A stretch of DNA of 64,000 nucleotides, from contig JAJDYI010000017.1 in NCBI GenBank assembly GCA_022825235.1, forward strand, positions 124,001-188,000. The letters are read 5' to 3'. A program made the position numbers and the translations under genes. The notes under the pieces are model-generated. The model was not told the DNA's origin. It did no database searches and saw only the letters and a program-made list of their open reading frames with translations. Positions 12,870 through 62,325 of the stretch are shown here, piece after piece (the stretch's first letter is position 1; every line of letters begins with the position of its first letter). This DNA comes from Alphaproteobacteria bacterium (GTDB taxonomy: Bacteria > Pseudomonadota > Alphaproteobacteria > TMED109).

Positions 12870-13172
12870 TGGTGCCGCCGGAGTGAATTGAACACTCGAC
12901 CCCACCCTTCGCACCACTGCCGCTTTCGCGACCGCCGTCTGCACCCGTTGCGGCGCATCCGGCGTTTGGTGGTCCGGACCATCCCTTGACCCGCGAGGGG
13001 CCCCGCCCGTCTGGCCTCTACACCTTCTCGCGCTAGCGCGAGCTTGGCTCGGGATTGGCATGGGCCTCTTGGCCCGCAGCGTTCCCCGAATTTGAGCGGT
13101 TCAGCCCCGGCAATTACTCGCCGGGCAGGCAATTCCTACCAAGGGTGTGCTCTACCACTGAGCTACGGCGGC
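12870..13172 (-). tRNA. tRNA-Thr(GGU) interrupted by a group I intron
   Basis: The 5' exon is 13172-13138: acceptor GCCGCCG, D-arm GCTC/GAGC, anticodon stem CACCC, then TT and anticodon GGT. The 3' exon is 12909-12873, with encoded CCA at 12872-12870: AA, stem GGGTG, variable loop GGGTC, T-arm GAGTG-TTCAATT-CACTC, acceptor CGGCGGC, discriminator A. Removing 13137-12910 gives a complete cloverleaf with all stems paired and loop TTGGTAA. The interruption falls directly after the third anticodon base, a known insertion point for bacterial tRNA group I introns. Confidence 0.93.
12910..13137 (-). ncRNA. Group I intron (subgroup IC3-like), 228 nt, in the anticodon loop of tRNA-Thr
   Basis: Group I core elements are readable on the minus strand. 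P1 can form between exon TTGGT and GCTGA (13105-13101), with a U-G pair at the splice site. P2 is the hairpin at 13106-13125. The P3/P4 strand CTCAAATTCGGGGAAC (13096-13081) closely matches the Azoarcus tRNA-Ile intron. The P7 segment GGTGTAGAGGCCAGACGGG (13024-13006) and its partner region with GATGGTCC (12983-12976) follow. A GAAA-capped hairpin lies near 12922-12929. The last intron base is G, as required for the omega-G. There is no room for a homing endonuclease. It is probably self-splicing. Confidence 0.92.
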
Positions 13173-13546
13173 AATGACGGCGGGCACCATGACCCGCAGC
13201 CATATCGAAGCCTAACATGGCAAGGGCACCGGCGTCATGCGGTCGTGATCAAGCGCACCTGCAAGATCTGTGACCCCCTTATTGTCTCGTGCAGGTTGAA
13301 TTGCCACGCGGAGACGAGTGGCAGATGCGGAAAAGCCAAGCGCCCGTGACAACGTTCCCTCGGACAGACGCAGCAGCGAGAACACGTGGTTGCCTGACCT
13401 CATAGCCCGAGAGGATCCCGTTCGCTTTCGTTGGAGGTGAAGGGCCAACCCGAGCTTGGGGTCTGATTCTCTGTTGTGCTTGGTGGTGGCGATGGGGCGG
13501 TCACCCGAATGCGGCCCCAACGTGATCAAAAAGCAAGTAGCAATAA
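13173..13546. other. Intergenic region upstream of tRNA-Thr and the porin operon
   Basis: Holds the unmarked promoter of the minus-strand tRNA-Thr and the leader of the plus-strand porin operon. No coding frame here is supported. The paired inverted repeats near the porin start are listed separately. Confidence 0.5.
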
Positions 13547-13623
13547 TGCGAATAAGAATGCGTTGCATTCGCACTTCGACTAAGTTATTAATTTTGCGAA
13601 TGCGAGTCATTCCTACTCGCATT
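13547..13623 (+). promoter_or_regulatory. Two Fur-like inverted repeats upstream of the porin
   Basis: GAATGC-GTT-GCATTC at 13556-13570 is nested inside TGCGAAT...ATTCGCA at 13547-13573. A second perfect repeat, AATGCGAGT-N7-ACTCGCATT, lies at 13599-13623 and ends 13 bases before the porin ATG. The AATGCGAnTCATTC pattern resembles GC-rich versions of Fur boxes. The position fits repression by metal-loaded Fur. No binding data are available. Confidence 0.55.
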
Positions 13624-13636
13624 TCTGGAGTCCACC

Positions 13637-14887
13637 ATGAATACGAATCGGATCTTGTCCGCGATGCGCCACGGTGCTGCGGTCTGCGCGGCCTGTGCCG
13701 TAATCATGGCGCTCAGGTCGGGCGGTGCCATTGCTCAGGAGATGCCGTCGCCAGAGGAAATGTGGCGGATCATCCAGCAGCAACAGCAGGAGATCGAGGC
13801 ATTGAAGGAGCGGATCGGTGCTGGCGAGGCGCAGGTGGAGGAGACGACGCAGGCGATCGAAGCAGTGGTCGAATCCATGGATGCGGGAACAGCGGGCGCC
13901 GGTTGGTGGGACCGTACCCAGATCGGTGGCTACGGTGAACTGCACTACAACATCAAAGAGGACTCATTGGACAGGGTCGATTTTCACCGCTACGTCCTGT
14001 TCTTCGGCCACAACTTCAATGCTACGACGCGGATGTTTTCCGAGTTCGAGCTTGAGCACTCGCTGGCCGGCGAGGGCAAGCCGGGCGAGGTCGAGCTCGA
14101 GCAGGCGTACATCGAGCGCAACTTCAGCGACTCCGTTACCGGCCGGGCCGGGATCATGCTGATGCCCGTGGGTCTTCTCAACGAGGTCCACGAGCCGCCG
14201 ACCTTCTACGGCGTTGAGCGCAACAAGATCGAGAACGTCATCGTCCCGACCACCTGGTGGGAAGCCGGCGTCTCCGGCACGATGACGACAGAGGCCGGCG
14301 TCCAGGTCGATGTGATGCTCCACAGCGGCCTCAAGGTGCCGACGGACAGCTTCAAGATCCGGAGTGGTCGTGGCAAGGTCGCGAACCACGACTTCGAAGA
14401 GGGGGCTCTGACCGGGCGGATCCGCTACACGGGAATGCCCGGGGTCGAGCTGGCCGCCGCCGTTCAGCATCAGGCGGACCTCACGCAAGGCAGCGACGCG
14501 AGTGGCACCCTGATCGTGGGCAACGCGGACGTGACCCGGCCGATCTCCGATTCGATGTCGTTGGGGCTGCGGGCGCTCTACGCGGGATGGGAGATCGACG
14601 GCGATGAGGCGGCAGCGCTCGGCGCCGACTCCCAGAACGGGTGGTACCTCGAGCCGTCGGTCCGGATGGCCCTGGGCGGCGATGAATCGGTGGGCGTCTT
14701 TGCCCGCTACGAGACGTGGGACACCAGGGCCGGCAACAGCGCCGACACCGAGGAGAACCAGTGGGTCGTGGGAATCAATTACTGGCTGCACCCCAACGCC
14801 GTGCTGAAGGCCGACTACGCGACGCTCGAGAAACCCGGCTCGGAGGACGCACGCATGCTGAGCCTGGGCGTCGGTTACCAGTTCTAG
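13637..14887 (+). CDS. Outer-membrane porin (phosphate-selective OprO/OprP-like) with N-terminal coiled coil
   Basis: Protein of 416 residues starting at ATG 13637, 11 bases after GGAG. A signal peptide (cleavage near GGAIAQ) is followed by a polar heptad region, about residues 40-80, rich in Q and E (IIQQQQQEIEALKERI) as in trimeric porins. The rest is a beta-rich barrel with alternating polar and hydrophobic strands and a C-terminal aromatic (GVGYQF). A stretch GGYGELHYN opens the barrel. It heads an operon with an FMN-binding and a PepSY protein. Behind Fur-like repeats this suggests iron-compound uptake rather than phosphate; that is inference. Confidence 0.8.
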   Translation: MNTNRILSAMRHGAAVCAACAVIMALRSGGAIAQEMPSPEEMWRIIQQQQQEIEALKERIGAGEAQVEETTQAIEAVVESMDAGTAGAGWWDRTQIGGYGELHYNIKEDSLDRVDFHRYVLFFGHNFNATTRMFSEFELEHSLAGEGKPGEVELEQAYIERNFSDSVTGRAGIMLMPVGLLNEVHEPPTFYGVERNKIENVIVPTTWWEAGVSGTMTTEAGVQVDVMLHSGLKVPTDSFKIRSGRGKVANHDFEEGALTGRIRYTGMPGVELAAAVQHQADLTQGSDASGTLIVGNADVTRPISDSMSLGLRALYAGWEIDGDEAAALGADSQNGWYLEPSVRMALGGDESVGVFARYETWDTRAGNSADTEENQWVVGINYWLHPNAVLKADYATLEKPGSEDARMLSLGVGYQF

Positions 14888-61782: not shown

Positions 61783-61918
61783 GCCGCACCTCCCCCCGGT
61801 TCCGGCCGCCCGTCATGGCGTCGCCGACGATCCCGGAGATGCGCCCCGCCGCGTCGCGGACATGCTCGTCCGCGAGATGGGCGTAGCGCTCGGTCGTGTT
61901 GACCCGCCCATAACCCCC
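61772..61918 (-). pseudogene. Truncated tyrosine recombinase, C-terminal end
   Basis: The minus strand gives NTTERYAHLADEHVRDAAGRI and about 20 more residues to a stop at 61774-61772. The motif with its catalytic Tyr is the end of a XerC/phage-like integrase. Upstream sequence breaks off near 61918. It overlaps the intact integrase start by 11 bases. Confidence 0.7.
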
Positions 61919-61923
61919 ACAAG

Positions 61924-62325
61924 TTGAGCGAGACGGACACGGTTCACTACTGTTTTCATCCGCTCGCGGGACCGCGGGTACGGACGCTGGAAAGCCGCTC
62001 ACATCGCGGGGAGCCGATGGTGGTGGTCATCGATGCTGCTGGTTGGCGGTATCACCTGCCGTTGTGGATAACGTTGCCGGAAGCGGCGTGGTGGGAGGTG
62101 CGCGAACGCCCGAGGCTGTCGCTTCCGGCGTTGTCGGAGCATCTTGGGCGAGGCGTACCGTGTCCTGATGCTGGTCGAAATCCGGAAGGTCCAGGTCGCG
62201 GTCGGGGACGTAGCAGGGGCCGGACGGATGATGGACGAGGCGCGGGCCGGGACGATCGAGGACACGGACGATCGGGTCTTTGCGCTCGCCCATGTCGCCC
62301 GGAACCAGGGGGGTGTGGTCCATGA
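61924..62325 (+). CDS. DUF5372-like small protein, frame possibly shifted at its end
   Basis: From TTG 61924 the first about 75 residues read HYCFHPLAGPRVRTLESRSHRGEP and LPLWITLPEAAWWEVRERPRL, the pattern of short DUF5372 proteins often found near transposons. Beyond about 62150 the frame becomes Gly/Arg-rich and overlaps other frames, so the true end is uncertain. No function known. Confidence 0.4.
   Translation: MSETDTVHYCFHPLAGPRVRTLESRSHRGEPMVVVIDAAGWRYHLPLWITLPEAAWWEVRERPRLSLPALSEHLGRGVPCPDAGRNPEGPGRGRGRSRGRTDDGRGAGRDDRGHGRSGLCARPCRPEPGGCGP

What the first reader, a model, noticed from the sequence alone, without database searches (positions are those of the whole stretch)
12870..13172. 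Group I intron inside tRNA-Thr(GGU)
Excising 13137-12910 from the minus strand leaves a perfect tRNA-Thr(GGU). The 228-nt insert has readable group I parts: a P1 with a U-G splice pair, P3/P4 CTCAAATTCGGGGAAC, P7 GTGTAGAGGCCAGACGGG and a terminal G. Known bacterial tRNA group I introns that I can recall sit in Leu(UAA), Arg(CCU), Ile(CAU) and fMet genes; I recall no Thr(GGU) host. If this is the only GGU isoacceptor, splicing is essential for growth.
Basis: partly seen in the sequence, partly recalled or inferred. Interest (0 to 1): 0.85.

Follow-up and report, generated by a model that had tools for sequence, protein, structure and literature searches.

The report
Self-splicing intron in threonine tRNA gene
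A bacterium's only gene for the threonine tRNA that reads ACC/ACU codons is interrupted by a small ribozyme (a group I intron) that must cut itself out; the same undescribed arrangement occurs across many Alphaproteobacteria and is missed by default tRNA searches.

Summary
On the minus strand, 13172-12870 is an intact tRNA-Thr(GGU) interrupted between positions 36 and 37 by a 228-nt insert (13137-12910). The insert is a complete small group I intron of the tRNA type (IC3-like): P1 to P9, the P3/P7 pseudoknot, GNRA loops L2 and L9, U·G at the 5' splice site, terminal G. A covariance model built without any Thr intron and without this genus hits it at 99.9 bits, E=1.9e-21. Rfam RF00028 alone gives 19.4 bits, below its cut-off.

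The other six genomes of the genus carry the same intron, and no other GGU tRNA-Thr was found in any of them. A database scan found 46 further complete cases across Alphaproteobacteria, including named isolates. In 46 of 47 Thr introns the guide sequence is UUGCC, matching the GGU anticodon; it occurs in 0 of 78 introns from other tRNAs. A Thr(GGU) host was not found in the papers I could search, so this is a new, widespread host for a known intron kind. Splicing itself is inferred. Relatives also sit in Lys, Thr(CGU), Arg(UCU) and Leu(CAA) tRNAs.

The parts
13138..13172 (-). 5' exon of tRNA-Thr(GGU), ending with anticodon GGU (13140-13138)
   Evidence: ARAGORN with introns; spliced cloverleaf
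12910..13137 (-). 228-nt group I intron (IC3-like), inserted between tRNA positions 36 and 37
12870..12909 (-). 3' exon of tRNA-Thr(GGU), including encoded CCA
13124..13140 (-). P1: anticodon GGU pairs with the guide GCC (13130-13128, conserved UUGCC) or, in this genus, with CCUGCC (13129-13124); U36-G wobble at the 5' splice site
   Evidence: conserved guide in 46/47 Thr introns
13108..13123 (-). P2 hairpin with GNRA loop GUAA (GCGA or GAAA in sister species)
13094..13099 (-). P3 5' strand CCGCUC
   Evidence: pairs with 13008-13003 in all 16 introns; 4 of 6 pairs with changes on both sides
13003..13008 (-). P3 3' strand GGGCGG
13049..13089 (-). P4 (13089-13084 with 13054-13049), enclosing P5 and P5a
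   Evidence: recovered in the unconstrained fold
13023..13047 (-). P6 and P6a hairpin
13012..13016 (-). P7 5' strand (guanosine-binding helix), pairs with 12981-12977
   Evidence: 100% paired in 16 introns, 2 pairs with changes on both sides
12977..12981 (-). P7 3' strand
12989..13001 (-). P8 hairpin (short in this genus)
12914..12972 (-). P9 domain (12972-12969 with 12917-12914) with GAAA hairpin L9 (12930-12921)
12910..12910 (-). Terminal G (omega-G) before the 3' splice site
   Evidence: all 47 Thr introns end in G

Best explanation
[quoted passage not shown] In the precursor the guide GCC pairs with the anticodon GGU to form P1 with a U36-G wobble. A guanosine bound in P7 attacks after U36, the freed 5' exon attacks after the terminal G, and the exons join to give mature tRNA-Thr, with UU of the guide region pairing to A37-A38 (P10). 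Shown here: the exons, splice-site signals, core helices with covariation, anticodon-matched guides in relatives, and no other GGU gene found. Inferred: splicing chemistry, its in vivo efficiency, and that growth depends on it.
For: Exact tRNA after excision. Non-self covariance hit, 99.9 bits, E=1.9e-21. Core helices P3, P4, P5, P6, P7, P8 and P9 paired in 16/16 introns, with double changes in P3, P5, P6a, P7, P8, P9 and the L9 hairpin; P4 and P6 do not vary. Same insert in six sister genomes at 92-96% identity. 46 further complete Thr(GGU) cases, all at 36/37 and all ending in G. Guide UUGCC in 46/47 Thr introns and in 0/78 others, UGAG-type in 36/37 Leu(UAA) introns, UUGGG in 15/16 Arg(CCU) introns. 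No other GGU tRNA-Thr found in the genome or its sisters. [quoted passage not shown]
Against: No RNA data for this organism or any Thr case. RF00028 reaches only 19.4 bits against a cut-off of 50. The assembly is 96.3% complete, so a missed second GGU gene cannot be fully excluded, though seven genomes agree. P8 is shorter than in relatives.
Confidence: 0.95

Rival explanations
1. A degenerate group I intron that no longer splices, leaving a dead tRNA gene, with ACC/ACU read by another tRNA.
For: No RNA evidence; RF00028 scores below its cut-off; a degenerate intron copy does exist in one relative (L196, G036).
Against: tRNA exons intact and perfectly paired, core helices kept by compensatory change, all seven genomes of the genus keep it, and no other GGU gene was found.
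Confidence: 0.03
2. The insert is removed by protein enzymes (endonuclease and ligase) as in archaea and eukaryotes, not by RNA catalysis.
For: It sits next to the anticodon, near the site of enzyme-spliced tRNA introns (PMC4033280).
Against: Enzyme-spliced tRNA introns are relatively short, under 100 nt (PMC4033280); this insert has guide, P3-P8 core and terminal G.
Confidence: 0.01
3. [quoted passage not shown]
For: Both introns are in the same genome, about 77% identical over the P3-P6 stretch.
Against: On the tree the Thr introns cluster with Thr(GGU) introns of other alphaproteobacteria (9 changes of label against 38.2 in shuffles), while the genus's Leu introns group with other Leu introns. 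The alignment is short, so deep forks are weak.
Confidence: 0.05

Closest known systems
Alphaproteobacterial tRNA-Arg(CCU) group I introns (Agrobacterium; Bartonella BbgpI, PMC7717549)
   Same: Same core, size class, 36/37 insertion after the anticodon U, U-G wobble and terminal G, unannotated tRNA gene
   Different: Host is Thr(GGU); guide is UUGCC in place of UUGGG; splicing not yet tested
Azoarcus pre-tRNA-Ile(CAU) IC3 ribozyme (crystal structures cited in PMC3984707)
   Same: Similar size, core order, short anticodon guide and GNRA loops in P2 and P9 (Azoarcus details from my own knowledge)
   Different: Different host tRNA; a betaproteobacterial intron; not compared by alignment here
Cyanobacterial, plastid and proteobacterial tRNA-Leu(UAA) introns
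   Same: Same intron type; this genome has one in its own tRNA-Leu(UAA)
   Different: Inserted at 34/35, guide UGAG; mostly separate from Thr introns on the tree

Membership tests
Group I introns | Catalytic core P3, P4, P6, P7, P8 with P3/P7 pseudoknot | tested here: met
   All pairs formed in 16/16 introns, with covariation in P3, P7 and P8; non-self model E=1.9e-21
Group I introns | P1 with U-G wobble at the 5' splice site and guide complementary to the 5' exon | tested here: met
   GGU with GCC; UUGCC in 46/47 Thr introns
Group I introns | Terminal G | tested here: met
   12910; all 47 Thr introns
Group I introns | Rfam RF00028 curated score cut-off (50 bits); a detection threshold, not a biological criterion | tested here: not met
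   19.4 bits, E=0.0058 over the excised stretch. The model is weak on this branch: the genus's Leu intron gets 26.0 and an Arg(CCU) intron 44.8, while another Arg(CCU) intron passes with 62.2
Group I introns | Guanosine-dependent self-splicing | not testable with these tools
   No RNA experiment possible; shown for the Bartonella relative (PMC7717549)
Subgroup IC3 of bacterial tRNA introns | Small intron in a tRNA anticodon loop with P5a hairpin, GNRA loops L2 and L9 and P9 domain | tested here: met
   Alignment with Leu, Arg and Lys tRNA introns. The subgroup name rests on resemblance to known members; no subgroup classifier was run
tRNA-Thr(GGU) genes | Cloverleaf with GGU anticodon after splicing | tested here: met

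The most novel reading that the evidence does not exclude
In Proteobacteria, above all Alphaproteobacteria, one kind of small tRNA intron has settled in at least nine anticodon contexts (Leu UAA and CAA, Arg CCU and UCU, Lys UUU and CUU, Thr GGU and CGU, Ile CAU), each time with its short guide retuned to the anticodon. That would make the guide-anticodon match a natural record of retargeting between essential tRNAs.
Probability: 0.55. Interest if true: 0.6.

Novelty: new member of a known kind. Interest (0 to 1): 0.42.

Why it matters
It adds tRNA-Thr(GGU) to the known hosts of bacterial group I introns, as a recurrent host in cultured and uncultured Alphaproteobacteria. It also explains why a tRNA of this kind can appear to be missing from an annotation: a default tRNA search and the Rfam group I model both pass over it here. 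If the tRNA is the only GGU isoacceptor, as it seems, the cell depends on a ribozyme to read ACC codons, here on two ribozymes counting tRNA-Leu(UAA). The anticodon-matched guides make a simple test case for how such introns change hosts.

Tried and rejected
Rfam: an E-value search of 3 kb around the gene found no group I or tRNA match, and RF00028 and RF00005 found nothing at this place in the whole genome; a search of the excised stretch alone and custom models were needed. A homing-endonuclease route was set aside: the intron is only 228 nt and the ORFs overlapping it run on through the exons and flanks. Trans-splicing in G002, suggested by two half hits, was rejected: the pieces lie at contig ends and overlap by 55 nt, which looks like an assembly break. 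The cyanobacterial Arg, Gly and Lys 'group I introns' of 22-49 nt in PMC5733544 are too short for a group I core and were not counted as prior cases. Promoter and terminator scan: nothing. Phage records: no match.

Full report
What is there. The minus strand from 13172 to 12870 reads as a tRNA-Thr gene with anticodon GGU and encoded CCA, interrupted directly after the anticodon (positions 36/37) by 228 nt (13137-12910). ARAGORN finds it only when introns are allowed; the default run does not, and a search of the whole genome with the Rfam tRNA model lists 43 places but not this one.

Is it a group I intron. The Rfam model RF00028 is a poor detector here: nothing in 3 kb at E<=1, and 19.4 bits (E=0.0058) when only the excised stretch is searched with permissive filters, against a curated cut-off of 50; the match nevertheless covers P3 to P7. 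I therefore aligned the insert with related inserts from other genomes and tested a named structure. Over 16 introns P3, P4, P5, P6, P7, P8, P9 and the L9 hairpin are paired in every sequence. 93.9% of pair cells are standard against 83.9% in column shuffles, and 29-47% when partners are slid; 23 pairs have changes on both sides against 12.0 in shuffles, none of 500 shuffles reaching it. The low cells are in P2 and P5a, where distant rows are not in register. As a non-circular test I built model R2 from 16 introns that include no Thr intron and nothing from this genus; it finds this place as its only hit in the window, 99.9 bits, E=1.9e-21, and two places in the whole genome. The unconstrained fold of the insert alone recovers P4, P5, P5a, P6a and the P9 hairpins.

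Splice sites. The base before the insert is U36 and the last base of the insert is G. The guide is UUGCC at 13132-13128: GCC pairs with the anticodon GGU (U36-G wobble), and UU can pair with A37-A38 of the 3' exon (P10, inferred). In this genus a longer pairing, GGUAGG with CCUGCC, is also possible; only the first register is shared with other Thr introns. One sister species has one extra T at the splice site (L003/L097).

Own genome and genus. All six other genomes of the genus hold the same insert in the same gene at 92-96% identity; in G002 it is broken by contig ends that overlap by 55 nt. The 42 intact tRNAs of the window's genome include Thr(UGU) and Thr(CGU) but no GGU, and Leu(CAA), Leu(UAG), Leu(GAG), Leu(CAG) but no UAA. 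Leu(UAA) is supplied by a second group I intron gene, at G000:C9, inserted at 34/35. A search with an intron-free tRNA-Thr(GGU) found no uninterrupted copy in the seven genomes of the genus. The assembly is 96.3% complete, so absence is strong but not absolute. That the spliced tRNA is essential is an inference from decoding rules.

Elsewhere. A single pattern scan of the species genomes in genome contigs (84,980 by the tool's description), anchored on a Thr(GGU) 5' half and the P3-P4 motif, returned 68 stretches. Model R1 confirmed 47 of them: 46 with both exons plus one cut by a contig end. All 46, and the window, give a tRNA-Thr(GGU) spliced at 36/37, with introns of 193-294 nt. A few of the 46 are records of the genus itself. 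Carriers include Roseicella, Roseomonas acroporae, Siccirubricoccus, Paracraurococcus, Crenalkalicoccus, Acuticoccus (three species), Alkalilacustris, Pseudaestuariivita, SAR116 and many Hyphomicrobiales and Rhodospirillales MAGs. The count is a lower bound, since the pattern is exact. The guide is UUGCC in 46 of 47 Thr introns and in none of 78 introns from other tRNAs; Leu(UAA) introns have a UGAG-type guide in 36/37 and Arg(CCU) introns UUGGG in 15/16.

Survey of hosts. Model R1 finds such introns in 48 of 385 evenly drawn alphaproteobacterial genomes. R1 was built partly from this genus, which favours its own kin. Of 56 matches, 53 were classed by splicing: Leu(UAA) 19, Arg(CCU) 9, Thr(GGU) 5, Lys(UUU) 8 (two sites, one case with stem mismatches), Lys(CUU) 4, Leu(CAA) 4, Thr(CGU) 2, two not assigned; the other three are the genus's own Thr copies. 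The phylum draw added Arg(UCU) and Ile(CAU). Some assignments were settled by eye where the splice script gave two equal solutions (Arg(CCU), Lys(UUU), Leu(CAA)), and Leu(CAA) 34/35 and three Ile(CAU) cases are tentative. On a tree of 127 cores labels cluster by host: Thr(GGU) needs 9 changes against 38.2 in shuffles. The window's intron lies with Thr introns of other alphaproteobacteria and away from its own genome's Leu intron. With 147 columns many forks are unresolved, so one or several origins of the Thr class cannot be told.

How it works. The best-supported account is the ordinary two-step group I reaction in a pre-tRNA. [quoted passage not shown] For Thr(GGU) no step has been shown experimentally.

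What is known. Papers held name Leu(UAA), fMet, Ile(CAU) and Arg(CCU) as bacterial hosts (PMC4033280, PMC8450103, PMC7717549). Searches for a bacterial Thr host returned nothing relevant, but many older and subscription papers are not held, so novelty is 'not found', not 'proved absent'. I file this as a new member of a known kind: same intron type, new and widespread host gene.

Noticed in passing
L240 (NC_004464.2, pCTX-M3, match at 61894-61992); L241; L242: 1261 enterobacterial plasmid records match the window's tRNA-intron stretch at 60-80% identity (about 75-80% in the best). In the three opened, the match lies in a complete, unannotated tRNA-Leu(UAA) with a group I intron of about 213 nt; in pCTX-M3 and pNCYU-29-69-1 it lies beside an AAA ATPase gene and an aac(3)-II aminoglycoside resistance gene. 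Its closest relatives among loci held are alphaproteobacterial (86% to L157), a hint to the source of that segment.
   Followed up: partly
L031 (G000:C9), 551-863: The same genome's only tRNA-Leu(UAA) also carries a group I intron (225 nt, site 34/35), so two tRNAs depend on ribozymes.
   Followed up: yes
L190, L192 (Thr CGU); L168, L176, L179, L199 (Lys CUU); L170, L178, L182, L184, L185, L193, L194 (Lys UUU); L220, L238 (Arg UCU); L188, L191, L197, L198 (Leu CAA): Group I introns of the same type in further tRNA hosts that I do not know as described; sites 33/34 to 36/37.
   Followed up: partly
Genomes of L119 (G770) and L093 (G775): Beside the intron-bearing tRNA-Thr(GGU), partial hits suggest a second, intron-free copy split by an insert (about 1.5 kb in G775) with an 8-nt repeat of the target, as an insertion sequence would leave.
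   Followed up: no
window 13541-13627: A long imperfect inverted repeat, lower in G+C than its surroundings, between the tRNA gene and the 416-aa ORF at 13637-14887; it draws chance microRNA-model matches on both strands.
   Followed up: no
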